A program made the position numbers and the translations under genes. Below are positions 3,820 to 14,968 of a stretch of DNA of 33,264 nt, piece by piece. The stretch's first letter is position 1. The number at the start of each line of letters is the position of its first letter. This DNA is from Oscillibacter sp. (lineage in GTDB: Bacteria > Bacillota > Clostridia > Oscillospirales > Oscillospiraceae). The DNA lies in contig JAGBDS010000010.1 in the NCBI GenBank assembly GCA_017937405.1, positions 1 through 33,264 of the forward strand, in the 5' to 3' direction. Below the pieces are notes generated by a model that worked only from the letters and a program-made list of their open reading frames with translations, had not been told where the DNA came from and did no database searches.

Positions 3820-4803
3820 ATGGAAGCAACCGTAATCAATGTTGGATATGGTGATGCGATTTTGGTGGAAACTGATGACGGATATCGGCTCCTGCTGGAT
3901 GGCGGAAGCGGCCTGGCATCGGAATTTGAAGGCGATCCTTACCGCATCCGCTCCGTGGATTACCTCTCCAAGCAGCAGATCGGCCATCTGGACGCCGTGG
4001 TGATCTCTCACATCCATGAGGACCATGTGTGCGGCCTGGAAGCGGTATTACAACAGACGGCGGTAGACCATCTCTATGTTCCATACCCGGCGGAGCCCTT
4101 TTTACAGGGCTGTGAGCTGATGCCTGCTAACGGAGTTCCCCGCAGTGTGCCATTGTACACCAATGCACTGAATGCCTACCGGAGAATTTTGCTTTATGCC
4201 AAAGAACGTGGAATTCCTGTTACCGTGCTAAAAACCGGGGATGTGTTGGAGTTTGGGACGGATGCGAGGATGCGGGTGCTGGCACCGAAAAACGGCGTTG
4301 TAGATGCGTACATGGAAGCCGTGGAGCGGGCATACCGGTTGGCCGATGATCCCGTCGCTGTGACCGAGTGTCTGACCCGGCTGGACGCCACCTCCAATCA
4401 CACCAGCATGCTGCTGAGTTTTGAACTGGAAAACACCGTTTTCCTCAGCGCGGCGGATAGCTGCCCTCGTGAATGGAACGAAGTTCCTAAAATTTTTCTT
4501 GAAAATGTAAACGTTCTCAAATTACCACATCACGGGCAAATCGACTCGGTTTCTGAACTTTTTATGAAAAATATGCCGCTGCGGTATGTGATTACCACCT
4601 CGGCGTCTGACAGGCGATATAACAGTGCGAATGAACAGGTATACCAGCAGCTGACCGCAATGTTCCCGGCGGATCGTACCCCTCAGTTCCTGTTCTCAGA
4701 CGAGCGGGAATATCCGCCTTATTTCTCACAGCCTGACGGATTTCAGGCAATCAAACTTGTAATGGATTCCGGAAAGATCACACCGGAGTTTATTAAAATT
4801 TAA
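3820..4803 (+). CDS. Metallo-beta-lactamase-fold hydrolase
   Basis: This 327-residue soluble protein has the metallo-beta-lactamase fold. The metal-binding HxHxDH motif is HIHEDH at residues 64-69, preceded by the structural Asp in LLLDGG (27). The distal ligands are likely the Asp in LSAADSC and the His in KLPHHG, as in the ComEC/Rec2-like and related hydrolase subfamily. No signal peptide or membrane segment is seen. An AAAGGAG ribosome site precedes the ATG. It lies 47 bases after the regulator and 19 before the binding-protein gene, so it is co-transcribed. In this setting it may hydrolyse an ester, lactone or phosphoester of the imported compound. That function is inference, and the substrate is unknown. 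Confidence 0.85.
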   Translation: MEATVINVGYGDAILVETDDGYRLLLDGGSGLASEFEGDPYRIRSVDYLSKQQIGHLDAVVISHIHEDHVCGLEAVLQQTAVDHLYVPYPAEPFLQGCELMPANGVPRSVPLYTNALNAYRRILLYAKERGIPVTVLKTGDVLEFGTDARMRVLAPKNGVVDAYMEAVERAYRLADDPVAVTECLTRLDATSNHTSMLLSFELENTVFLSAADSCPREWNEVPKIFLENVNVLKLPHHGQIDSVSELFMKNMPLRYVITTSASDRRYNSANEQVYQQLTAMFPADRTPQFLFSDEREYPPYFSQPDGFQAIKLVMDSGKITPEFIKI

Positions 4804-4822
4804 GAAAAGAGGAGAAAAAACG

Positions 4823-5851
4823 ATGAAAAAGCTCATGTCTCTGGCCCTCGCGCTCATCATGGTCCTGAGCTTGGCAGCCTGCGGCGGCAAGACCGCTGAT
4901 ACGCCCAAGCCCGACAGCCAGCCCCAGCAGGAAACCACCGACAAGACCCCTGAGAAGCCCGCGGATTCCTTCCCCGAGAAGCAGGTGACCATCATCATGC
5001 CCTGGAGCCTGGGCGGCGGTCCCGACACCATTGCCCGTCAGGTTGCTTCCTACGGTGAAAAGTATCTGGGCGTCCCTGTGATCGTTGAAAACCACACCGG
5101 TGGTTCCGGCACCATCGCTATGAACGACGCTCTGCAGGCAGCGGACGACGGCTACACCATGGTGGTCGCCAATGGTCCTCTGTTCTCCCTGACTCCCAGC
5201 TTTATCAACATCAACTACACCCTGGACGATATTACGCCCCTGATCGGTATGCGCATTACCGAGTTCGTCATCCTGACCAACTCCAAGAGCGGCATTACCA
5301 ACATCGATGAGCTGAAGGCTTACGCCGCTTCCGGCCACACCATCAAGTACGCCACCACCGGCGGCCCCGGCAACGACAGCTACACTATGATTTCTGTCCT
5401 GTTCAAGCTGCTGGACATCCCCTCTGAGGCAGTTCCCTATGACGGCGGCCAGGAAGCCATCAACGCTCTGGTCGGCGGCCATGTGGATGTGGCCATTGGT
5501 TCTCCTCCGACCTATCGTGACTATGTTATCAACGGCGACCTGAACTGCCTGGGCACTTTCATCCCCGAGGGTCTGGATGTGGAAGGCATCGGTCATATCC
5601 CCTCCTTCAAGGATCAGGGCATCGACGTGGACTTCACCGGTATGGACTACTTTGCCGTTCGTTCCTCTGTGGACGACAGCAAGAAGGAAATTCTGACCAA
5701 CTTCATCAAGCAGGTCTATGCTGATCCTGACTTCCAGGAGTTCATGAAGGGTATGGGCATGAAGGCTTGGGAAGCCACCGAAAGCGAGATTATCGGCATG
5801 GTGGAATCTCAGACCGAGGCTATGACCAAGTACATCCCTCTGGTTCAGTGA
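4823..5851 (+). CDS. tctC: Tripartite tricarboxylate transporter substrate-binding lipoprotein (TctC)
   Basis: This 342-residue lipoprotein is the extracellular solute receptor of a TctCBA secondary transporter. The signal peptide has a hydrophobic run ending in a lipobox LAAC (Cys about residue 19), followed by a Pro/Lys/Gln-rich linker to about 50. The mature domain begins with the family's typical KQVTIIMPWSLGGGPDTIAR strand-loop and continues with VENHTGGSGTIA, both carboxylate-binding segments of TctC/Bug proteins. Length is usual for the family. A GAAAAGAGGAG ribosome site precedes the ATG. The transporter genes tctB and tctA follow. The ligand is probably a carboxylated compound, but Bug proteins vary too widely to name it. 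Confidence 0.95.
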   Translation: MKKLMSLALALIMVLSLAACGGKTADTPKPDSQPQQETTDKTPEKPADSFPEKQVTIIMPWSLGGGPDTIARQVASYGEKYLGVPVIVENHTGGSGTIAMNDALQAADDGYTMVVANGPLFSLTPSFININYTLDDITPLIGMRITEFVILTNSKSGITNIDELKAYAASGHTIKYATTGGPGNDSYTMISVLFKLLDIPSEAVPYDGGQEAINALVGGHVDVAIGSPPTYRDYVINGDLNCLGTFIPEGLDVEGIGHIPSFKDQGIDVDFTGMDYFAVRSSVDDSKKEILTNFIKQVYADPDFQEFMKGMGMKAWEATESEIIGMVESQTEAMTKYIPLVQ

Positions 5852-6380: not shown

Positions 6381-6398
6381 TCAGAAAGGAGAATGCTT

Positions 6399-7889
6399 AT
6401 GGAACAATTTTTAGGTGGACTGCAGATCCTGATGCAGTGGCAGCACTTTTTGATCATTCCTCTTGGCCTGGCTATCGGTATCGTGGTTGGTGCCATTCCC
6501 GGCCTGACCTCTGACCTCGGTATTATTCTTTGTATCCCTCTCACCTACGGCATGGAGCCCACCATGGCGATTTTGATGCTGCTGGCTATCTACTGCGGCG
6601 GTACTTACGGCGGCTCCATCACCGCAATTCTGATCAACACCCCCGGCACCTCCGCCAATGCGGCGACTCTGTTTGACGGCTATCCCATGACTGTAAAAGG
6701 GCAAGCGTTCAAGGCGCTGCAAATGGCGCTGTACGCCTCTACCATCGGCGGCCTCATCAGCGCTGTGGCGCTGCTGTTTCTGGCTCCTCAGATCGCAAAG
6801 ATCACGCTGCTGTTTGGTCCCGCTGAATATTTTGCCTTGGCTGTATTCGGCCTGTCTGTCATTGCGGGCGTTTCTAACAACAGCATCTTCAAAGGCCTTA
6901 TTGGCGCCTGCATCGGCCTGTTTATGGCAACCATCGGCATGGACAATATCAGCGGTACAGCCCGCTTTACCTTTGGAAGCAATCGGCTGATGAGCGGCAT
7001 CGACCTCATCATCGCCCTCATCGGACTGTTCGCGATTTCTGAGATCATGATGAAATCGCAGTATGACCCCAAGAAAGACCACAAAACCATCAGTGCCTCG
7101 GCTATCACCAAGGACAAGATCACCAAGGATGAGTACCGGCGCTGCCGGAAGCCTATCGCGCTGGGTTCCCTCATTGGCGTCATAATCGGAGCCGCGCCCG
7201 GTACCGGCGGCGGTCTGGCGGCGTTCATCTCTTACAACCAGACCAAGCAGGCATCTAAGCATCCCGAGACCTTCGGGCATGGCGAGATCGAAGGCGTGGC
7301 AGCCTCCGAGTCTGCCAACAACGGTGCCTGCGGCGCTACCATGATCCCCATGCTGACCCTGGGCGTTCCCGGCGACGGCGCCACGGCTATTCTCATGGGC
7401 GCGTTCATGATCCACGGTATGATTCCCGGCCCCACGCTGTTCAAAGAGCAGGGAAATATCCTGTATGCCATCATGCTGGGCCTGATCGTGGTTAATGTGT
7501 TTATGTACATCCTGGGCAGCGGCTTCACCCGTTTCTACGCCCATATCACCCGAATCCCTTACGAGATCCTGGCAGCCATCGTGCTGACCTTCTGCATCGC
7601 AGGTGCATACTCCACCAACAACCGGATGTATGATATCTACATTATCCTGATTTTCGGTATCGTGGCGTATTTCCTGCGCCGCATGGACTTCCAGCTGGTG
7701 CCAATTCTGCTGGGCATCGTGCTGGGGCCTCTGGCTGAGAAAAACTTCCGCCGGGCGCTGGTACTGTCTGACGGCAGCCTGAGCATCTTCTTTACCCGTC
7801 CCATCAGCTGCGCTTTCATCGTGATCGCTGTGGGCTCTGTGCTGCTGTTTGCTTGGAAGAATTATAAGGCCAAGCGTAGAGTACAGTAA
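6399..7889 (+). CDS. tctA: Tripartite tricarboxylate transporter large membrane subunit (TctA)
   Basis: This protein of 496 residues is the large channel-forming subunit of a TctCBA secondary importer. It shows about ten to twelve hydrophobic segments and the family signature GGTYGGSITAILINTPG followed by a GYPM motif. A second conserved glycine-rich repeat, GAAPGTGGGLAAFISY, lies in the middle of the protein. The second ATG (6399) is chosen over the one at 6393 because AAAGGAG at 6385-6391 sits 7 bases before 6399 but only one base before 6393. It is followed by a strong hairpin and then the kinase gene. Confidence 0.95.
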   Translation: MEQFLGGLQILMQWQHFLIIPLGLAIGIVVGAIPGLTSDLGIILCIPLTYGMEPTMAILMLLAIYCGGTYGGSITAILINTPGTSANAATLFDGYPMTVKGQAFKALQMALYASTIGGLISAVALLFLAPQIAKITLLFGPAEYFALAVFGLSVIAGVSNNSIFKGLIGACIGLFMATIGMDNISGTARFTFGSNRLMSGIDLIIALIGLFAISEIMMKSQYDPKKDHKTISASAITKDKITKDEYRRCRKPIALGSLIGVIIGAAPGTGGGLAAFISYNQTKQASKHPETFGHGEIEGVAASESANNGACGATMIPMLTLGVPGDGATAILMGAFMIHGMIPGPTLFKEQGNILYAIMLGLIVVNVFMYILGSGFTRFYAHITRIPYEILAAIVLTFCIAGAYSTNNRMYDIYIILIFGIVAYFLRRMDFQLVPILLGIVLGPLAEKNFRRALVLSDGSLSIFFTRPISCAFIVIAVGSVLLFAWKNYKAKRRVQ

Positions 7890-7952: not shown

Positions 7953-8834
7953 ATGAAGCAATCATATGACGTGCTGGTCATCGGACCGGTGTCCTTGGAC
8001 CACAACATTGACTATCAGGGCAATGAACGCAAGGAACTGGGCGGCGCCGTGGTAGCCTCCGGCTTCGCGGCAGCCAAGAGCGGCAACAAGACCGCCCTGT
8101 TCACCAAGCTGAACCCCGCCGACGCCGATGTGGAGGCGCGGTTCGCAGGCTCTGGTGCGGACCTCTATTGGAAGGAATCCAAGGCAACCTGCTCCATCCG
8201 CAACCAGTATTTCACCGCCGACAAGGAAAAAAGGGCCTGCACCTCCATGGGTGTGTGCGATCCCTTCAAGTTTGAGGAGCTGCCGGACATCGAGACGAAA
8301 ATCTACCACTTCGCCGGACTGGTGTACGGCGACTTTGACGGCGCCCTGTTCGCTGAGGCTGCCAAGCACGGCAAGGTAGCGGTGGACGTCCAGTGCCTTC
8401 TGCGGCACGTGGAGGCGGACAAGACCATGGCCTTCCACGACTGGGCGGAGAAGATGGAATACCTGCCCTGTATTGACTACCTCAAGACCGACGCCGCCGA
8501 GGCGGAGATTTTGACTGGCCTCACTGACCGGGCGGAGGCGGCCAAGCTACTCCACAGCTGGGGCGCGAAGGAAGTGCTCATCACCCACAACACCGAGGTG
8601 CTGGCCTACGACGGCAAGGACGTCTATACCTGCCCCATCAAGGCCCGGAATCTCTCTGGCCGCACGGGGCGGGGCGACACCACCTTCGCTGGGTACATCA
8701 CCGAGCGCCAGCGGGCGGATATCGCCGAGGCCCTGCAGTACTGCACGGCGCTGGTGTCCCTGAAAATGGAGACGCCGGGCCCCTTCCAGGGCACCCGCCA
8801 AGATGTGCTGGACTACATCAAGGATTTTTATTAA
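7953..8834 (+). CDS. PfkB-family (ribokinase-like) carbohydrate kinase
   Basis: This 293-residue cytoplasmic protein belongs to the PfkB/ribokinase family, which phosphorylates sugars, sugar acids or nucleosides with ATP. The N-terminal strand YDVLVIGPVSLDH and the following GGAVVASGFAAAKSG match PfkB signature 1. The C-terminal signature GRTGRGDTTFAGY carries the catalytic Asp at about residue 242. The ATG at 7953 is preferred over an in-frame ATG at 7917 because AAGGAG (7938-7943) precedes it and the earlier one lies inside the intercistronic hairpin. As the last gene of the operon it probably phosphorylates the compound delivered by TctCBA and released by the metallo-hydrolase. Its substrate is not known. 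Confidence 0.9.
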   Translation: MKQSYDVLVIGPVSLDHNIDYQGNERKELGGAVVASGFAAAKSGNKTALFTKLNPADADVEARFAGSGADLYWKESKATCSIRNQYFTADKEKRACTSMGVCDPFKFEELPDIETKIYHFAGLVYGDFDGALFAEAAKHGKVAVDVQCLLRHVEADKTMAFHDWAEKMEYLPCIDYLKTDAAEAEILTGLTDRAEAAKLLHSWGAKEVLITHNTEVLAYDGKDVYTCPIKARNLSGRTGRGDTTFAGYITERQRADIAEALQYCTALVSLKMETPGPFQGTRQDVLDYIKDFY

Positions 8835-9130: not shown

Positions 9131-9199
9131 ACAAAATCATGAAAAATCCGCCCGGATAAGCCTGAGTTTGAGGCTTGTCCGGGCGGATTCATGATTCAA
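9131..9199 (-). terminator. Large terminator-like hairpin after the UPF0158 gene
   Basis: A long imperfect stem pairs caaaatcatgaaaaatccgcccgga on the left with its near-complement around 9177-9199. An inner aagcct/aggctt stem closes the loop. Read on the minus strand it starts about 50 bases after the UPF0158 stop, and the distal arm ends in GGATTTTTC then ATTTTG, as expected for an intrinsic terminator. On the plus strand it could also stop readthrough from the kinase operon. Confidence 0.65.
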
Positions 9200-9245
9200 A
9201 AGGCATCGGCAGAACTGCCTGAAAGAACGGCCCTGCGATGGATGT

Positions 9246-9740
9246 CTACTGCCGAGCTTTGGTGTCGGCATGGCCGCAAGACGTTTTTTCGCTTCGAAGC
9301 TGATAAGGCAGATTGTAATTCTCACACCATTTCTGGGCGATATCCATGAAGGCGCAGGAACGGAAAGCGTAGTAAGCCTGGTCTAAATCCAAATAGTAGA
9401 TTTCGTCTTTAAAGTGTCGATACGGCTTCTGACCACGAAGCGCCCGGAAAAGACGGCTACTCTTAGAACTGTCCTGGACGGATTCGGCAAAAGACTCCAT
9501 AATGTGATACTCGTGAATATCATATTGGTTAGGCAGGCGAAGATAGTCGCCGGATGCATCAATGCGCTCTGCCAGATCTTTGTCCGGCTGAACATACTCG
9601 CCGTCGGGCAGGTATTCAAACTCACCGGTGGCAACGTTCAAATATTGTTCCCAGTGATCGGAGGCCTCTTCCAGCTTTTCGGCAATGTCCTCCAGATAAA
9701 CGGTCACCAGAGTGCGGCCTGGCTTGTTACAAAGAAACAC
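9246..9740 (-). CDS. UPF0158 family protein
   Basis: This protein of about 164 residues matches UPF0158. It has LEDIAEKLEEASDHWEQYLN followed by TGE, then YDIHEYHIMESFAE, a LFRALRGQKPYRHFKDEI core, and a C-terminal YYAFRS with AQKWCEN helix. The molecular function of the family is unknown. The open frame runs much further upstream and overlaps the ribbon-helix-helix gene in another frame. A GTG at 9738-9740 with GGGGAG 8 bases upstream is the best-supported start; a GTG at 9707 just before the conserved TVYLEDI is an alternative. It lies 55 bases after the ribbon-helix-helix gene, probably in the same transcript. A DNA-binding small protein followed by a partner of unknown function resembles toxin-antitoxin layout, but this is inference. 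Confidence 0.78.
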   Translation of the reverse strand: MFLCNKPGRTLVTVYLEDIAEKLEEASDHWEQYLNVATGEFEYLPDGEYVQPDKDLAERIDASGDYLRLPNQYDIHEYHIMESFAESVQDSSKSSRLFRALRGQKPYRHFKDEIYYLDLDQAYYAFRSCAFMDIAQKWCENYNLPYQLRSEKTSCGHADTKARQ

Positions 9741-9795
9741 AGCGACATCTCCCCTGCCTGGAACTTTGGATTTGAAAACAGAAAGAGCGAAGAGT

Positions 9796-9984
9796 TCAGG
9801 GTTTATGGCTCTGATCCCGATCCATGGTTTCAGCAATGGCACGGTTGATGAAGCCACTAAGGCTTTCGCCTCGAGATTTTGCATAATCTTGAATTTTTGC
9901 TTTTTGTCCCTTAGGCATAATGAGATTGACTCTATCCACGTTTTCCTTTTGCCATTTATTTTTATAATCTGTTCTATCAGGCAT
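9796..9984 (-). CDS. Small ribbon-helix-helix (Arc/MetJ-type) DNA-binding protein
   Basis: This 62-residue protein looks like a ribbon-helix-helix regulator: a DRVNLIMPKG beta-strand, a first helix KAKIQDYAKSRG, the ESLSGFINRAI turn and second helix, and a charged tail. The ATG at 9984 is preferred to the in-frame ATG at 9999 because GGAGGG overlapping the first ATG lies 7 bases before the second. Small proteins of this type act as antitoxins, plasmid or mobile-element repressors, or relaxosome accessory proteins. It is followed by UPF0158 and preceded by a region with two 16-base direct repeats, probable binding sites. The region was also open in another frame, but the ribbon-helix-helix frame is clearly the coding one. 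Confidence 0.82.
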   Translation of the reverse strand: MPDRTDYKNKWQKENVDRVNLIMPKGQKAKIQDYAKSRGESLSGFINRAIAETMDRDQSHKP

Positions 9985-10026
9985 TTTGTGTCCCTCCATT
10001 CAACGCAGACGCTAAACGCCAATACT

Positions 10027-10055
10027 ATTATACAATAAATCGATCTTGGCCAAAG
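10027..10055 (-). promoter_or_regulatory. Candidate promoter of the ribbon-helix-helix/UPF0158 pair
   Basis: On the minus strand a perfect TATAAT (10027-10032) is preceded after 17 bases by CTTTGG (10050-10055), a poor -35 match. Transcription would start near 10020, about 36 bases before the start codon. The weak -35 box suggests an activator or a nearby regulator. Confidence 0.5.
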
Positions 10056-10072
10056 TGGGAAACTTCCACAAA

Positions 10073-10122
10073 AAGTCGTGCGCAAGACTAGCAAAAATAA
10101 CGGTTGAAGTCGTGCGCAAGAC
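10073..10122. repeat. Two 16-bp direct repeats with internal dyad symmetry
   Basis: aagtcgtgcgcaagac occurs at 10073-10088 and again at 10107-10122, a 34-base period (about three helical turns). Each copy is nearly palindromic around TGCGCA (gtc-k-tgcgca-m-gac). The second copy fills the spacer of a plus-strand promoter candidate and both lie upstream of the minus-strand promoter. They are probable operators for the ribbon-helix-helix or XRE protein, or binding sites at a transfer origin. Confidence 0.65.
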
Positions 10123-10132
10123 ATGATACAAT
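10104..10132 (+). promoter_or_regulatory. Candidate promoter overlapping the second direct repeat
   Basis: TTGAAG (10104-10109), a 17-base spacer, and TACAAT (10127-10132) on the plus strand. The spacer is almost entirely the 16-base repeat, so a bound repressor would block it. The predicted start is near 10139, at the head of the structured leader. Confidence 0.5.
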
Positions 10133-10138
10133 ACAGAC

Positions 10139-10392
10139 AAAGCAAGAAATGATCTTGCTGAAAACAAACCCACATCAGATGTGGGGGCAAAAAGTAGCAG
10201 CATACGAGAGCGCCAACTCCCGTATGCCTACGCAGGTGGTTACGGCACCAGCACAGTAGTACAAGACTACGCTACGGGAGAATTATACCCATTTTTCGGA
10301 CATTACGCAAGAACTATTGTCCGAAAATGGGCAGACACCTTTCCAAAGCGGCTTGATGCGCTATGCAGGTTCCAGCCTGCATAGCGCTTTTT
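10139..10392 (+). ncRNA. Candidate structured leader RNA upstream of the XRE-GHKL operon
   Basis: About 250 bases without a gene hold a chain of stem-loops. They are agcaag/cttgct (10141-10159), cccacat/atgtggg (10169-10185), catacgagag/ctcccgtatg with one mismatch (10201-10226), ggtg/cacc (10235-10249), gtagt/actac (10256-10270), a 14-15-bp arm pair cccatttttcggaca with one bulge (10288-10331), and a final intrinsic terminator (10358-10392). In addition ctcccgta (10217-10224) can pair with tacgggag (10273-10280), excluding the third hairpin, so alternative folds exist. A promoter candidate sits just upstream. It could be an attenuating leader, an independent small RNA, or an oriT-like DNA region. 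I do not recognise a known family. Confidence 0.4.
10358..10392 (+). terminator. Intrinsic terminator inside the leader of the XRE gene
   Basis: A perfect 12-bp stem (10358-10369 with 10376-10387), a 6-base loop and a TTTTT tail. It lies about 93 bases upstream of the XRE start codon, so transcripts entering from upstream would end here unless antitermination occurs. Confidence 0.8.
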
Positions 10393-10484
10393 GCTGCGGT
10401 CGAAAGAAAGGTGTGAGGTGCCATGCAGAACACTGGGTAAAGAGACGCTCCCCCAGACAATTTCATCAAAAGAAGGTATTTTCC

Positions 10485-10892
10485 ATGAACGAGAAAAGAG
10501 CGGGTCGCTTTGCGCACGGGATGGAAATGCCCGACTCCGTGGTAGATTATCCCCAAATCGGACAGCGCATCAAGCGGCTCCGCAATCAGCGCGGCATGAC
10601 GCAGGAGGCTCTTGCTGAGGCTACCTCCCTGTCAGTCCCGTACATTAGTCATTTGGAGCGTGCGGTGAAAAAGGGCAGCCTGGAGACGCTGACGCGGATC
10701 GCGGCAGCACTGGGCGTAACGGTGCATGAACTTCTCGGGATTCCACGCTCCGAGAAAGAAGCTTTCCTGCCGGACATGACCTCTGTGCTGGAGGATTGCT
10801 CTCCGAAGGAGCGGAAGTTCCTGCTGGAAGTAACGGCTGCAATCAAAGAGATCATGCGGCAGGAGAAACAGGAATTTTCAAATAATACGTGA
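10485..10892 (+). CDS. XRE-family helix-turn-helix regulator
   Basis: This 135-residue protein carries a Cro/C1-type (XRE) DNA-binding domain at about residues 26-80: IGQRIKRLRNQRGMTQEALA, then SVPYISHLERAVKKGSLETL and LGVTVHELLG. A short helical C-terminal tail rich in Lys/Glu follows. The ATG at 10485 is chosen because AGAAGG lies 8 bases upstream; an in-frame open stretch back to 10317 overlaps a terminator and is not supported. The gene is followed 14 bases later by the GHKL-nuclease gene, so it probably controls that operon. Placement behind a terminator and repeats points to regulated or low basal expression. Confidence 0.88.
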   Translation: MNEKRAGRFAHGMEMPDSVVDYPQIGQRIKRLRNQRGMTQEALAEATSLSVPYISHLERAVKKGSLETLTRIAAALGVTVHELLGIPRSEKEAFLPDMTSVLEDCSPKERKFLLEVTAAIKEIMRQEKQEFSNNT

Positions 10893-10906
10893 AAGGACGA
10901 ACAAAC

Positions 10907-12403
10907 GTGAGCGATATGATCAATATGAAGGAAGAACAGTTCGAACTGGACAATACGCCTGATGCTGAGAACCTCTGGAAGGCCATCGGCGGCAGCTTCT
11001 CCAACATCGCCCAGGCAATCAGCGAGTTTGTGGATGACAGCATCTCCAACTTCCGCCAGAACTGGGGGAAGGCCACCATGGTCCGCACCGTGCGGCTGAC
11101 GCTGCATGCCTGCGGTGAGAAGGTGGACATCACCGTGGAGGACGGCGGCACCGGGATCCGCAACCTGGCAAACGCCATGACGCTGGCAGGTCAGGCTGAC
11201 AAGGAGACGCCTCTGAACGAGCACGGTTACGGCCTCAAGCACGCCCTGGCCTATGTGGACGCCAAGGGCAGCGGCTGGGAGGTCGCTACCAGGACGGAGG
11301 AGGACCTGAAGCGGAACCGCTGCCAGGTGGTCAAGAGCCCCTATGCCATCGGCAAGGGGAAGCTGAACAGCGTCTACCGTACCGGCTGGTGGCCGGCACA
11401 CCTGGGCCCCACCGGCACGATGATCAGCGTCTCCTGCTCTATGGAGATGCTCCGTACGCTGTGCCCCGAGGACAATGAGAAGCAGAAGACTTTCTGGCAG
11501 CTGGTGGATATTCTGGAGGAGGATCTGCGTTATACTTACGCGAATATCCTCTATAACGGCGAGGCTGAAATCGAGCTGGTGGTCAGCGATGGTAAGATCA
11601 ACCGTCAGAAGAAGCTGAAGCCGCTGTTCCCCCAGTGGGAGGCGGGGACGCTCCAGGAGCTGCCCGTCCAGAAGTATGATCTGGGCGGCGGCAGCATCCA
11701 GATCCACTGCCGTTACGGCTCCATCTGCACGGATAAGAATAACTACAGCCACTACATCCGCAGCATGGACGCCAGCGGCGTCGAGATCCGCATCAATGGC
11801 CGGGTCATTGAACACGGCCTGATCAAGCAGGTGTGGGGCCGTTCCATCCACAACTCCCAGAACGCCTTTCTGGCGCAGATCGACCTGCAGACGGATTCCT
11901 GGGATGCCCTGCCGTCCACCAAGAATGCCAAAAACGGCTTCCGGGAGGAGGATCCCCGTCTGCGGAAGCTGTTCAGGTGGATCCGCGCCAATGTCCAGCT
12001 CCCCCCTTCCTCCCGGGAAACGAAGGAGCAGAAGCTGCTGGCCAAACTGGCGGAGAAAAAGCGTGCCGTTCCCGGTATGACCCGGGTGGCGCAGGAAGAA
12101 GGCGTCTTCCGCACCATCGGCCTGAATGAGCGGATGGACCTGCTGACTGCCCAGGGAGGCGCAGTGACCGTCTACGAGGGAAAGGCCGGTCAGACCAAGA
12201 CCCGTGATGTGTACCAGATGATGATGTACTGGCACGGCTGTGTCCAGGATGGCATCCCTGTGGCTGAGGCGGTTCTGATCGGCGAGCGCCACACGAAGGC
12301 GGTTCGCCGCCTGATCCAGCACATCAACGGTATGCTGGGCCCGGACGGCCGGCCCTACTGCTTCCGGGCGGTGACCTGGGCTGAGGAAGGTATCACTGCC
12401 TGA
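10907..12403 (+). CDS. GHKL ATPase with C-terminal PD-(D/E)XK nuclease-like domain
   Basis: This 498-residue protein starts with a Bergerat (GHKL) ATP-binding fold. It has an N-box EFVDDSISN (residues 40-48), a G1 motif VEDGGTGI (D79, G81, G83), a G2 motif HGYGLKHAL (106-114) and GPTGTMISV (167-175). The middle (about 180-330) resembles the second domain that follows GHKL modules in MutL/MORC-like proteins. The C-terminus has MDLL with D411, then VYEGKAG (E424, K426), and QMMMYW (Q437). This is the D-(X)n-ExK plus Q-xxx-Y pattern of PD-(D/E)XK nucleases. The usual Mg-binding Asn of the N-box is Asp (D44). AAAGGA sits 9 bases before GTG 10907; ATG 10916 is possible. The architecture suggests an ATP-switched nuclease, for defence or element maintenance. 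Confidence 0.8.
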   Translation: MSDMINMKEEQFELDNTPDAENLWKAIGGSFSNIAQAISEFVDDSISNFRQNWGKATMVRTVRLTLHACGEKVDITVEDGGTGIRNLANAMTLAGQADKETPLNEHGYGLKHALAYVDAKGSGWEVATRTEEDLKRNRCQVVKSPYAIGKGKLNSVYRTGWWPAHLGPTGTMISVSCSMEMLRTLCPEDNEKQKTFWQLVDILEEDLRYTYANILYNGEAEIELVVSDGKINRQKKLKPLFPQWEAGTLQELPVQKYDLGGGSIQIHCRYGSICTDKNNYSHYIRSMDASGVEIRINGRVIEHGLIKQVWGRSIHNSQNAFLAQIDLQTDSWDALPSTKNAKNGFREEDPRLRKLFRWIRANVQLPPSSRETKEQKLLAKLAEKKRAVPGMTRVAQEEGVFRTIGLNERMDLLTAQGGAVTVYEGKAGQTKTRDVYQMMMYWHGCVQDGIPVAEAVLIGERHTKAVRRLIQHINGMLGPDGRPYCFRAVTWAEEGITA

Positions 12404-12420
12404 GCGAAAAAACTGAGGAA

Positions 12421-12453
12421 GGGCGGGGCCGGTAATGCGGCTTCGCCCCCTTT
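12421..12453 (+). terminator. Intercistronic hairpin after the GHKL-nuclease gene
   Basis: gggcggggcc (12421-12430) pairs with ggcttcgccc (12439-12448) through ten pairs including two G-U wobbles. An 8-base loop is followed by CCTTT. It is likely a weak terminator or a stability element that lowers expression of the two downstream genes. Confidence 0.5.
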
Positions 12454-12476
12454 AAAAGATGAAACAGGAGGAGCAT

Positions 12477-13007
12477 ATGTATATTTCCTTCCATAAGGTT
12501 CAACTCCCGGGAATGGTGTGCGTTCTGATCCACCTGATGTCCCGCCTGACAGAGGAATTCCCGCAGCTGCTCCAGAAATATCTCAATGAACGTCTGGATC
12601 CAGTCAGCGAGCTGTATGACCCGGCGTTCCCGTGGGACAGAGCGCGGCTGATTTTGATGTATCACGGTCCTCAGGAGCTGCCGGACCGCGGCCGGATCAC
12701 CCTCCCCAACGGGCGGACAGTGCAGATGTTCAACATCAATCCCGGACACAGCGGACCCGCCGCTTCCCTGCTGGGAGACTATATTCCGGCCATGGAAACC
12801 GGCCGTCAGGCGCTGCTTGCCGGAGGTACGCCCCTGGAAGCGGCGCTGAAGATCTGGATCTACTGTTTGCAGAACGATACCATGCACACCATGACCTCTA
12901 CGGAGAAGAACTTTCAGCGGGTCGTGGAAGATATGGAGCGGCTTCAGGAAGCATTGGCAGAGGAACTGGCATCCAGCCTGACGATAAAAGGAGGTGTATC
13001 CCAGTGA
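12477..13007 (+). CDS. Protein of unknown function, coupled to the integrase
   Basis: I do not recognise this 176-residue protein. It begins with a hydrophobic, probably helical segment (LPGMVCVLIHLMSRL), then a helix-rich stretch LLQKYLNERLDP. A Pro/Gly-rich middle with GRITLPNGRTVQMFNINPGH looks like a beta hairpin, and a final amphipathic helix NFQRVVEDMERLQEALAEEL could be a coiled coil. There is no signal peptide or clear membrane segment. The ATG at 12477 is chosen over 12459 because AGGAGG (12466-12471) lies between them. Its stop codon overlaps the integrase GTG (GTGA), indicating translational coupling. Position between a nuclease-like ATPase and an integrase suggests an accessory role in that module, which is inference. 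Confidence 0.75.
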   Translation: MYISFHKVQLPGMVCVLIHLMSRLTEEFPQLLQKYLNERLDPVSELYDPAFPWDRARLILMYHGPQELPDRGRITLPNGRTVQMFNINPGHSGPAASLLGDYIPAMETGRQALLAGGTPLEAALKIWIYCLQNDTMHTMTSTEKNFQRVVEDMERLQEALAEELASSLTIKGGVSQ

Positions 13008-14119
13008 TACTTCAGAAGAATCCGACCTTGAAGGAGTGGGCGGAGTTTTGGCTTTCCACCTATGTGCGCCCGGCGGCAAAGCCCAGCGGATATGAGCACT
13101 ACCACGACAATCTCTATAAACACATTTTGCCGAAACTCGGTTCAGTCAGGTTGAATAAGCTGACGACGCCGAGGGTGCAGATGTTTTTAAACGAGGAAGC
13201 CGAGCGTGGAAATCTCCGTGACGGCGGCCCGCTCAGCGCCAAGAGCCTCAAGAATATGCGGGTAGTGCTGGACGTCTGCTGCAAGCGCGCCGTGGCTGAT
13301 GGGTATATGGAAGCCAATCCTGTCCCTGCGACAGTGTATCAACACTGTTCTGCCCCGAAAGTGGAGGTCATGAGCGACAGCAATCAGAAGATCCTGGAGG
13401 AATGGCTGTTTCAGGATGTCTCCCTGCTGAATGCGGGAATTATCATGGGCCTCTACAGCGGTATGCGCTTGGGAGAAGTCTGCGCGGCTCGGTGGCGCCA
13501 TTACGATGCACAGCGCGGCTGCCTCCATGTGGAAGAAACGGTCCGTCGTGTTACCAAGTATCAGCAGACAGTGGGCAGCAAAAAGCGCACGGAACTGGTA
13601 TTTTCATCCGTGAAATCCGATTCATCCAAACGGACACTTTATCTGCCAGATGTGCTGAATGATCTCGCCGCCATGCAGTATGAGAGGTTTCATGTAATCA
13701 CCGGGAGATTTCCCGAACCGGATGATTTCATCATCTTCAATTCTCGGGGTGGCCTGATGGATCCTGACAATCTGAGTCATTACTTTGGGGATGTCCTAGA
13801 TGGGCTAGGACTGCCCCATGTAAAGTATCATGCCCTCAGGCATACCTTTGCCACAAGAGCAGTAGAAAAAGGCGTGGACATTGCAACGGTTTCTGGTCTT
13901 CTTGGGCATGCGGATGTGACCACGACCACACATTACTATGTGCATCCCCGGGAGGAAGCCATGCGCAAGGCTATGACCTCCATCAGCCCGGTCACAACGG
14001 CCTATGCACCGCGGGGCCATCGGAATTTCCCCGGTTTCCCACAGACGGAACCGCAGGAAGCGGAGACGCCTCAACGGATCTGCCGTCGAAGAAAGCACAT
14101 TCAGGAGGCTGTGTCGTAA
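13004..14119 (+). CDS. Tyrosine-type site-specific integrase
   Basis: This 371-residue protein is a phage/ICE-type tyrosine recombinase. An N-terminal SAM-like core-binding domain (about residues 5-100, LKEWAEFWLSTY then LTTPRVQMFLNEEA) precedes the catalytic domain. The catalytic Arg is in LYSGMRLGEVCAARW, the HxxR box is YHALRHTFATRA, and LLGHADVTTTTHYYVHP carries the second His and the nucleophilic Tyr. All the key residues appear present. The start is GTG 13004, with AAAGGAGG 9 bases upstream, overlapping the previous stop. A long open frame back to 12632 is an out-of-frame shadow of that gene. The C-terminal ~40 residues are basic and may be variable. It presumably mobilises the 9.1-14.3 kb island. 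Confidence 0.93.
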   Translation: MILQKNPTLKEWAEFWLSTYVRPAAKPSGYEHYHDNLYKHILPKLGSVRLNKLTTPRVQMFLNEEAERGNLRDGGPLSAKSLKNMRVVLDVCCKRAVADGYMEANPVPATVYQHCSAPKVEVMSDSNQKILEEWLFQDVSLLNAGIIMGLYSGMRLGEVCAARWRHYDAQRGCLHVEETVRRVTKYQQTVGSKKRTELVFSSVKSDSSKRTLYLPDVLNDLAAMQYERFHVITGRFPEPDDFIIFNSRGGLMDPDNLSHYFGDVLDGLGLPHVKYHALRHTFATRAVEKGVDIATVSGLLGHADVTTTTHYYVHPREEAMRKAMTSISPVTTAYAPRGHRNFPGFPQTEPQEAETPQRICRRRKHIQEAVS

Positions 14120-14228
14120 CTGCTGAAGTAAGCGGACGCTTCCTTTGCTTTCAGAAAGGCGAGTTTTGGCGGATCATTACCTGTGCCGCTGTGGCGGCTA
14201 TGATATGGAGCGGTTTTGAATATCTCAG

Positions 14229-14271
14229 AACCGGCGGACAGCGATTTTAAAGCTGTCCGCCGGTTTTTTTG
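14229..14271 (+). terminator. Strong intrinsic terminator after the integrase
   Basis: A perfect 14-bp stem (14229-14242 with 14252-14265), a 9-base loop and a run of seven T including the stem end. It closes the XRE-GHKL-integrase operon and lies 110 bases after the integrase stop. Confidence 0.9.
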
Positions 14272-14968
14272 TTTCTCCCACAAAATAAGCGGGGTTCAAA
14301 GAACTTTTCGCACAAAAAGATGAAATCAGACACCGTTCTGCGATGTACTTCCATTTCCATGCTGTTCCGACGATTTTCTGCCTCGACAATACATCATTTT
14401 TCGAACTTTTTATTATAAAAAACAAATATTTAAATACAAAAATGGACAAAATACGCACTTTTTGGTGAGACAATAGGGGTGCAAAAAATGAAAGCCCGAA
14501 GGCACCCGACAAGTGTTCGGACGCCTCCGGAAGAGAGGGGTGGTACGGGTGAAAAATGCGTTGCCGTCCGGCTGGCGGAGCGCCTGGCGGCAGTGTCCGG
14601 TGGGACATATTTGGAAAGCCACGGCCTTTTCCCGGGCAGGGCCGCCGTGAAAACTGCTACACAAAGGAATCAGCATATGCCGTTCACCGCGCTCACCTCA
14701 CCATGAAGATTGTCGATGGGTTATATCCAGTATATACCACTCTTTTACGTACGGCAATACGATTAGACTGGCAGTGAGGGAGTCAAGGAAGGAAACATAT
14801 GGAAGATCGTATCCGGCTGGAAAAATAGGTGCCCATACTGTACTGCTTCCCCAAAAATCAAAATTGCCATGACATAGGGAATATACTATCTCCAAACGGC
14901 TGCGAAATTCGATTAGCCCTATACATTGAGGTTGATGGGACTTTTCGCTGAGGATCCCGGCGGGAGCA
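14272..14968. other. Intergenic stretch of about 700 bases without a supported gene
   Basis: An AT-rich patch (about 14395-14450) is followed by a GC-rich segment, then a mixed region leading to the glucosidase promoter. Several short frames exist on both strands (for example 14479-14706 plus and 14698-14982 minus), but none has a convincing ribosome site or a recognisable domain. The abrupt composition change and the position directly after the integrase operon make this a plausible right boundary zone of the island. No duplicate of the left flank that could be an attachment site was found by eye. Confidence 0.4.

What the first reader, a model, noticed from the sequence alone, without database searches (positions are those of the whole stretch)
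10485..14119. XRE - GHKL ATPase/PD-(D/E)XK nuclease - unknown protein - tyrosine integrase operon: candidate undescribed defence or mobility system
The sequence shows one plus-strand operon whose core is a 498-residue protein with all GHKL motifs (N-box, DxGxG, GxGLK, GT) and a C-terminal D-ExK-Q pattern typical of PD-(D/E)XK nucleases. ATP-switched nucleases are common in phage defence, and XRE control plus an integrase is typical of mobile defence cargo. I do not recognise this combination as a named system. The nuclease domain and the defence role are inference.
Basis: partly seen in the sequence, partly recalled or inferred. Interest (0 to 1): 0.75.

Follow-up and report, generated by a model that had tools for sequence, protein, structure and literature searches.

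The report
Mobile ATP-gated nuclease with RNA switch
A small mobile gene cassette in a gut bacterium carries a predicted ATP-controlled DNA-cutting enzyme of a known kind, kept under a swappable repressor and a conserved three-armed RNA switch that I could not find in the RNA family library.

Summary
GHKL motifs and E374-D411-E424xK426 are conserved in 18 homologues; an AlphaFold model agrees. The architecture is known: Iyer et al. 2008 called it paraMORC3. XRE (6 of 15 loci), this integrase (4) and the 176-aa protein (3) are optional; the usual partners are a divergent RHH gene (12 of 15) and a leader RNA (14 of 15). The RHH gene's 5' part and the predicted operators differ as one block from the nearest relative, as in phage immunity regions. 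The leader is a covarying cloverleaf followed by a terminator whose arm covaries with it. It occurs in 51 of 86 genomes of the genus, before unrelated genes, and matches no Rfam family in 15 sources tried. Defence is plausible but untested. Known enzyme type, new regulatory packaging, candidate new attenuator RNA.

The parts
9246..9740 (-). UPF0158-like protein, accessory; among the loci compared, shared only with the nearest relative (L024)
   Evidence: Pfam UPF0158 8.6e-4, just below its cut-off, on the longer frame 9246-10190; 83% identity in L024
9796..9999 (-). 67-aa ribbon-helix-helix (CopG/Arc-like) protein, divergent; predicted repressor of the operon
   Evidence: phrog_13890 8.5e-17 (unknown function), Arc-like repressor phrog_582 1.6e-4; homologue in 12 of 15 genome loci
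10075..10088 (+). near-palindrome GTCGTGCGCAAGAC, predicted operator 1
   Evidence: exact 14-base repeat; these are the only two copies in the window on either strand
10104..10132 (+). promoter-like site TTGAAG-17-TACAAT with TG before the second hexamer
   Evidence: 6 such sites found in 5.5 kb, 3.1 expected; a TTGA/-10 pair at the same place in 12 of 12 loci (loose pattern, no control)
10109..10122 (+). predicted operator 2, inside the promoter spacer
10190..10297 (+). cloverleaf leader RNA (three hairpins closed by P1), model R1
   Evidence: cmsearch 99.8 bits (the window is a training row); own fold is the cloverleaf, z -3.97; covariation
10358..10387 (+). intrinsic terminator of the leader, 13-bp stem then TTTTT
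10485..10892 (+). XRE-family regulator, 135 aa
   Evidence: Pfam HTH_3 1.4e-14; PADLOC HTH models such as Control_protein 1.4e-14 and capH 1.9e-12, which generic XRE proteins may match; in 6 of 15 loci, on either side of the GHKL gene
10907..12403 (+). GHKL ATPase + S5 + PD-(D/E)XK nuclease, 498 aa (nuclease domain about residues 364-498)
12477..13007 (+). 176-aa partner of unknown fold
   Evidence: no match except DUF7730 at 0.046, below its cut-off; a homologue is fused to a degenerate copy of the nuclease domain in L027
13004..14119 (+). tyrosine integrase, 371 aa
   Evidence: Pfam 3.2e-19; 94, 72 and 63% identical copies beside GHKL in L024, L027, L030

Best explanation
A small integrase-borne cassette (from about 9135 to somewhere between 14119 and 14212; ends inferred from where homology to relatives starts and stops) whose payload is a paraMORC3-like enzyme: an ATP-driven GHKL/S5 dimer clamp that closes on DNA and controls its own C-terminal PD-(D/E)XK nuclease. 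Because such a nuclease is dangerous to its host, expression has two gates. A divergent RHH repressor binds paired palindromes, one inside the operon promoter, and a cloverleaf leader RNA decides between an intrinsic terminator and read-through. I infer that entry into a new cell, or a change of host state, opens the gates, and that the nuclease then acts on competing or invading DNA (phage, plasmid, rival element). SHOWN by sequence, model or covariation: domains, conserved catalytic residues, covarying RNA structure with a terminator, promoter and repeated palindrome, block difference at the repressor, mobile context. INFERRED: repressor binding, attenuation in cells, the signal, dimerisation, nuclease activity and its target.
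For: Invariant D43, D79, G83, K111, G170-T171, R299, E374, D411, E424, K426 in 18 homologues, E40 and Q437 nearly so. Model and Foldseek: SMCHD1 ATPase 4.2e-14, Hsp90, MORC3/4, GyrB. Profile against PDB: topoisomerase VI-B 3.9e-5, a histidine kinase 9.3e-5, Mlh1 0.0042, MutL 0.027. R-M contexts of relatives: Lactiplantibacillus plasmid with dcm and a Sau3AI enzyme, Priestia plasmid with dcm, MutH/Sau3AI and SNF2, viral contig L041 with BglII-type and HNH nucleases and an integrase. Recombinase genes in 11 of 15 loci and RHH in 12 of 15, against 3 and 0 of 53 shorter comparison regions. Block difference: identity to L024 is 82-98% over 9151-9850, 26-50% over 9901-10200, 88-100% over 10251-10450. 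RNA: 65 doubly changed cells against 18.4 +/- 3.6 shuffled, 0 of 500; same fold found de novo in 30 sequences outside the training set. Terminator after 56 of 59 RNAs against 16 of 201 windows. Own cloverleaf/terminator-arm pairs bind better than re-paired ones, 0 of 5000.
Against: No defence gene was recognised beside the window operon, and PADLOC has no model for it (six neighbour proteins). The second Lactiplantibacillus relative (30%) lies beside a RecD-like helicase and a toxin-antitoxin pair, not R-M genes. The family is rare: 5 of 86 genomes of the genus, 8 of 300 of the family, the window's own only among 398 of the phylum (in one search at most 3 candidates per genome were scored). 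No direct repeat of 10 bases or more that would mark attachment sites, and no empty site shown. The leader RNA also precedes what look like ordinary host genes, so it need not sense infection. The cloverleaf/terminator-arm pairing is weaker in the window (-8.8 kcal/mol) than in 50 of 55 others. Iyer et al. place paraMORC3 mainly in proteobacteria and Bacteroidetes, not Gram-positives.
Confidence: 0.55

Rival explanations
1. The nuclease is a component of a restriction-modification system whose methylase and specificity subunits lie elsewhere in the genome (paraMORC3 in the sense of Iyer et al. 2008).
For: Relatives at 25-32% identity lie beside dcm, Sau3AI/MutH and SNF2 genes; Iyer et al. note standalone paraMORC3 genes that may act with unlinked R-M genes.
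Against: I recognised no methylase or R-M gene among the genes called around the window gene and its 14 loci, but most of these were read by eye, not by profile, and I did not search the rest of the genome for a cognate methylase.
Confidence: 0.2
2. It serves the element itself: the ATPase-nuclease processes DNA ends or topology for integration, excision or transfer of the element, not defence.
For: Recombinase genes in 11 of 15 loci; the same integrase (63-100%) in 4 of 15; relatives on mobilizable plasmids and phage contigs.
Against: The linked recombinases are of several tyrosine and serine types (named by eye except the window's), and 4 of 15 loci show none of those probed; such recombinases are not known to need this kind of helper (recalled).
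Confidence: 0.12
3. A toxin-antitoxin or addiction module: the nuclease is the toxin, and the XRE, RHH or 176-aa protein its antidote or repressor.
For: PemK/MazF-like genes adjoin the GHKL gene in 4 of 15 loci (clustered; Pfam PemK_toxin 8.1e-17 for the L025 copy); the 176-aa domain is fused to a nuclease copy whose ExK has become KxE in L027.
Against: No single candidate antidote is present at all loci; RHH is missing in 3 of 15 and the 176-aa protein in 12 of 15.
Confidence: 0.13

Closest known systems
paraMORC3 (Iyer, Abhiman, Aravind 2008, PMC2292703; parts 1-2 of 4 of its main section read)
   Same: N-terminal GHKL, S5 domain, C-terminal RecB-like restriction-endonuclease fold with E-D-ExK; standalone or R-M-linked, laterally mobile
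   Different: Firmicutes cassette with RHH gene, leader RNA and integrase; published members could not be compared sequence to sequence, and the paper places them mainly in proteobacteria and Bacteroidetes
VcSduA, GHKL-type Shedu (PMC12137116, passages seen)
   Same: GHKL ATPase fused to a PD-(D/E)XK nuclease, shown to be anti-phage; authors propose ATPase control of the nuclease
   Different: Its nuclease is DUF4263; none of the 8 Pfam families listed for 18 members here is DUF4263
MutL / topoisomerase VI-B / MORC / SMCHD1
   Same: GHKL+S5 clamp
   Different: These are not known to carry a PD-(D/E)XK domain of this type (recalled)
T-box and riboswitch leaders
   Same: Structured 5' leader whose strand can compete with an intrinsic terminator (general knowledge)
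   Different: No Rfam match at the RNA positions in 15 sources; downstream genes are unrelated to each other

Membership tests
paraMORC3 | N-terminal GHKL domain with all ATP-binding motifs | tested here: met
   Invariant D43, D79, G83, K111, G170-T171, with E40 and G81 nearly invariant, in 18 sequences
paraMORC3 | S5 domain after the GHKL domain | tested here: met
   Foldseek aligns chains that hold GHKL+S5 modules (SMCHD1, MORC3/4, GyrB, Hsp90) over about 390-590 columns; a prediction, query TM-scores 0.28-0.44
paraMORC3 | C-terminal RE-fold domain related to RecB nucleases with E-D-ExK | tested here: met
   E374-D411-E424xK426 with Q437; PDDEXK_1 in 4 of 19 (best 2.3e-5) and Cas_Cas4 in 4 of 19 (best 7.1e-4) tails; secondary structure order
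paraMORC3 | direct homology to the published members | not testable with these tools
   Members are named only in figures, which are not held
paraMORC3 | published distribution (proteobacteria, Bacteroidetes); a habit, not a definition | tested here: not met
   The window genome's family and the plasmid hosts found are Firmicutes (paper)
MORC proper | GhXhhpXXRhl motif in the S5 domain | not tested
   R299 is invariant, but the motif was not aligned to MORC proteins
Shedu (GHKL type) | DUF4263 nuclease domain | tested here: not met
   Not among the 8 families listed for 18 members at E 0.1
Known anti-phage systems (PADLOC 2.0) | profile match of the core protein | tested here: not met
   Only weak single-domain hits, best Cas4 2.9e-4 in a homologue; none for six neighbour proteins at E 0.01
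Described RNA families (Rfam 15) | match at the leader RNA | tested here: not met
   No match at the RNA in the window stretch or 14 other loci (E limits 1, 0.5, 0.1)

The most novel reading that the evidence does not exclude
The leader is a new class of transcription-attenuating cloverleaf RNA, spread over Oscillospirales in up to about 24 copies per genome before surface, membrane and unknown genes. A mobile ATP-gated nuclease has taken it over as a host-state gate, stacked on a repressor/operator module that is swapped between elements like a phage immunity region.
Probability: 0.5. Interest if true: 0.78.

Novelty: new variant of a known kind. Interest (0 to 1): 0.6.

Why it matters
If true, it gives (1) an orphan RNA switch with many copies, hence many natural reporters, in common gut bacteria, whose signal can be sought directly; (2) a testable case of a paraMORC3-like nuclease, a group predicted in 2008 for which I saw no biochemical test (7 papers hold the word paraMORC, listing; four of them seen in parts or passages), related to MORC and SMCHD1 of eukaryotes; (3) a hint that very small elements exchange repressor/operator blocks, which would give them immunity classes.

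Tried and rejected
Considered and rejected: XRE + 176-aa + integrase as the conserved core (optional parts). Shedu membership (no DUF4263). The 557-aa minus-strand ORF opposite the GHKL gene, taken as the shadow of a high-GC gene (judged; not searched for homologues). The 67-aa ORF 10181-10384 as a protein: in L029 the frame holds a stop, while the RNA structure is kept. The right-hand region 14212-14677 as part of the element: it is also upstream of a large gene in G061 and G084 that I take by eye for S-layer type. PD-L1 chains as top hits of the nuclease profile: chance; NucS at 0.12 is the one sensible hit there.

Led nowhere: attachment-site repeats; an empty site (sugar-kinase relatives share DNA only up to about 8838); single-sequence AlphaFold (pLDDT 34.8); relatives of the 176-aa protein in viral contigs (none) or in the order (own plus one match at 9.9e-4 in 345 genomes); further viral relatives; Rfam hits (animal miRNA names below cut-off; T-boxes and a tRNA away from the RNA).

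Limits: XRE count 6 of 15 is by tblastn at 1e-3; the looser clustering adds distant HTH genes in L027 and L031. The recombinase and RHH probes were cut from the same loci (one serine recombinase from L038, one integrase from L013) and, but for the window integrase, named by eye, so the counts describe rather than test; leaving out one unchecked integrase-like family (F22) keeps 11 of 15. Its 53 comparison regions (300 kb in all, shorter than the loci) were chosen by the RNA (40), by a sugar-kinase gene (10) or by the 14420-14720 leader region (3). R1 was trained on 14 loci, 13 of the 15 genome loci among them; only L034 of the 15 is held out. The structure scored was drawn by me on that same alignment; its measure 'further pair types' is weaker (32 against 27.5, 13 of 500). 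The 30 sequences were picked by the model. Genome scans with the RNA model scored only the best 24-45 candidates per genome. The 201 control windows are random stretches, not leaders. In one search, 32 of 40 loci had a called gene within 800 bases downstream; 31 were scanned. The permutation tests ignore relatedness. The repeated palindromes had no chance control. Gene calls come from my own hexamer script.
Full report
Observation. Flanks are a sugar-kinase gene ending at 8834 and an alpha-glucosidase-like gene from about 15036 (named by eye from translations). The genome is probably an Oscillibacter-like gut bacterium: the same-genus genome G084 shows the contig length and coordinates of Oscillibacter valericigenes An890.

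The enzyme. Pfam alone is weak for this protein but firm for its family: HATPase_c_3 in 16 of 18 members, best 1.1e-11, and PDDEXK_1 in 4 of 18, best 2.1e-6. In an alignment of 18 homologues, down to 27% identity, the GHKL residues D43, D79, G83, K111, G170, T171, the later R299 and K342, and the nuclease residues E374, D411, E424, K426 are invariant; E40 and Q437 nearly so (motif names recalled). A family profile finds topoisomerase VI-B (3.9e-5), a histidine kinase (9.3e-5), Mlh1 (0.0042), MutL (0.027) and, for the tail, NucS (0.49) among solved structures. Query TM-scores are 0.28-0.44 in the rows shown. The tail shows helix-strand-strand-strand-helix-strand at residues 373-459. I could not search the tail's fold alone.

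What it belongs to. Iyer et al. 2008 (PMC2292703, parts 1-2 of 4 of the main section) describe paraMORC3: GHKL, S5 and a RecB-like nuclease domain with E-D-ExK, laterally mobile, in R-M operons or standing alone, mainly in proteobacteria and Bacteroidetes. The window protein meets the architecture, not that distribution. R-M context is seen in distant relatives: 32% identity on a Lactiplantibacillus plasmid with dcm and a Sau3AI enzyme; 25% over 63% of the protein on a Priestia plasmid with dcm, MutH/Sau3AI and SNF2; viral contig L041 (24%) with BglII-type and HNH nucleases and an integrase. A second Lactiplantibacillus relative (30%) has no R-M gene annotated on its plasmid. It is not GHKL-Shedu: no DUF4263.

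Distribution and neighbours. Matches: 5 of 86 genomes of the genus, 8 of 300 of the family, the window's own only among 398 of the phylum, 3 of 72,556 plasmid records, 1 of 50,697 phage records, 5 viral loci. Over 15 genome loci (window, L024-L037): RHH 12, XRE 6, this integrase 4, the 176-aa protein 3; some probed recombinase 11 (L028, L029, L031, L037 show none). PemK/MazF-like genes adjoin in 4 of 15 (Pfam on the L025 copy). In L027 a 176-aa-like domain is fused to a copy of the nuclease domain in which ExK reads KxE: a likely dead nuclease, tying the unknown protein to the enzyme.

Repressor block. In 12 of 12 loci that have both RHH and the leader RNA (11 genome loci and phage contig L013), a TTGA...-10 pair lies between them. 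A repeated palindrome, one copy in the promoter spacer, was clear by script in 8 of 12 (window, L024, L026, L027, L030, L031, L032, L035) and weaker in L037; in L025 and L033 the script's pair was poor (near-copies can be seen by eye), and L013 gave none. No chance control was run. In the window GTCGTGCGCAAGAC occurs twice, at 10075 and 10109, and nowhere else in the window. Against the nearest relative L024 (GHKL 97%, integrase 94% identical, RHH 54%) DNA identity is 82-98% over 9151-9850, 72% at 9851-9900, 26-50% over 9901-10200, 75% at 10201-10250 and 88-100% over 10251-10450; the last, edge bin to 10500 reads 66%, while BLAST gives 91.7% over 10187-14677. The changed block is the 5' part of the RHH gene and the predicted operators. 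Exchange of a repressor with its operators is what heteroimmune phages show (established knowledge); binding is not shown here.

Leader RNA. Between promoter and first gene lies a structure shared by 14 of 15 loci and phage contig L013; L036 lacks it. On the 14 training rows, 27 pairs are 94.2% paired, with 65 doubly changed cells against 18.4 +/- 3.6 in shuffles (0 of 500) and 2-10 when slid. RNAalifold on 30 sequences outside the training set finds the closing stem and three hairpins again, 15 of 24 pairs with double changes. The window RNA folds so by itself (-34.2 kcal/mol, z -3.97). L034, held out, scores 109.2 bits just before its GHKL gene.

Leader RNA beyond the cassette. The model hits, the window's own genome counted, 51 of 86 genomes of the genus at 0.001, 50 of 160 of the family at 1e-6 with up to 24 copies in one genome, and at 1e-8 19 of 147 of the order and 2 of 149 of the phylum. 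Downstream genes are unrelated: of 31 scanned, SLH 4, DUF4230 3, others singly or twice. Rfam has no match at the RNA in any of 15 sources tried. A terminator follows 45 of 47 RNAs and 11 of the remaining 12, 56 of 59 in all, against 16 of 201 random windows; the three without include none of the GHKL loci. Its 5' arm (often GTGTAGG, in another group GTGTTGAGT) pairs with the 3' strand of hairpin P3 (CCTACAC, ACTCAACAC). Own pairs are stronger than re-paired ones: 45 RNAs, -12.73 against -11.18 +/- 0.23; 56 RNAs, -13.12 against -10.51 +/- 0.30; 44 unique pairs, -13.18 against -10.35 +/- 0.36; 0 of 5000 each. Divergent cases change both sides (L135, L142, L146, L136, L139). This is the layout of a terminator/anti-terminator switch; relatedness is not corrected for, and the window's own pairing is modest (-8.8, weaker than 50 of 55 others).

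Is the RNA in print? PMC8040213 lists 3161 candidate RNAs from human microbiomes (passages seen); the name Oscillibacter is absent from its main text and its tables could not be read. The rows listed by the searches showed me no paper on this RNA. So 'new' means not in Rfam 15 at those sources and not found by these searches.

Mechanism. Most likely: ATP binding closes the GHKL dimer on DNA and licenses the C-terminal nuclease; repressor and attenuator keep it silent until the element enters a new cell or the host state changes. Target and signal are inference. Rivals: part of an unlinked R-M system, helper of the element's own movement, or an addiction toxin.

Verdict. Observation confirmed; interpretation partly supported. 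The enzyme is a new variant of a known kind. The leader RNA and the swappable repressor block are the surprising parts.

Noticed in passing
window 10190-10387; G000:C31:6019-6132 and many other contigs: Cloverleaf leader RNA with terminator, widespread before unrelated genes (SLH, DUF4230, TraX, M23 and unknowns). The second copy in the same genome (L134) precedes a 1026-aa protein that looks secreted by eye; no terminator was found after that copy.
   Followed up: yes
L027:8373-9188 (-): 176-aa-like domain fused to a degenerate PD-(D/E)XK domain (ExK to KxE) beside an intact copy: possible pseudo-nuclease partner.
   Followed up: partly
L030:11603-12940, L034:2043-3383, L031:12754-13638, L114 about 4593-5534 on the RNA strand: About 445-aa family recurring near these loci; the L030 and L034 copies match nothing in Pfam or PADLOC. 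The L114 protein resembles it by eye.
   Followed up: partly
window 14212-14677: Region conserved upstream of a large, by eye S-layer-type gene in G061 and G084; I see no such gene after it in the window.
   Followed up: partly
L039 (from a 156-kb viral contig) 6384-7877; L038 2538-4043: A 34% identical GHKL-nuclease inside a large viral contig, and a 38% identical one between two genes that look like serine recombinases.
   Followed up: no
G120:C11 (L035): A copy of the GHKL-nuclease gene broken into two overlapping frames, suggesting decay.
   Followed up: no
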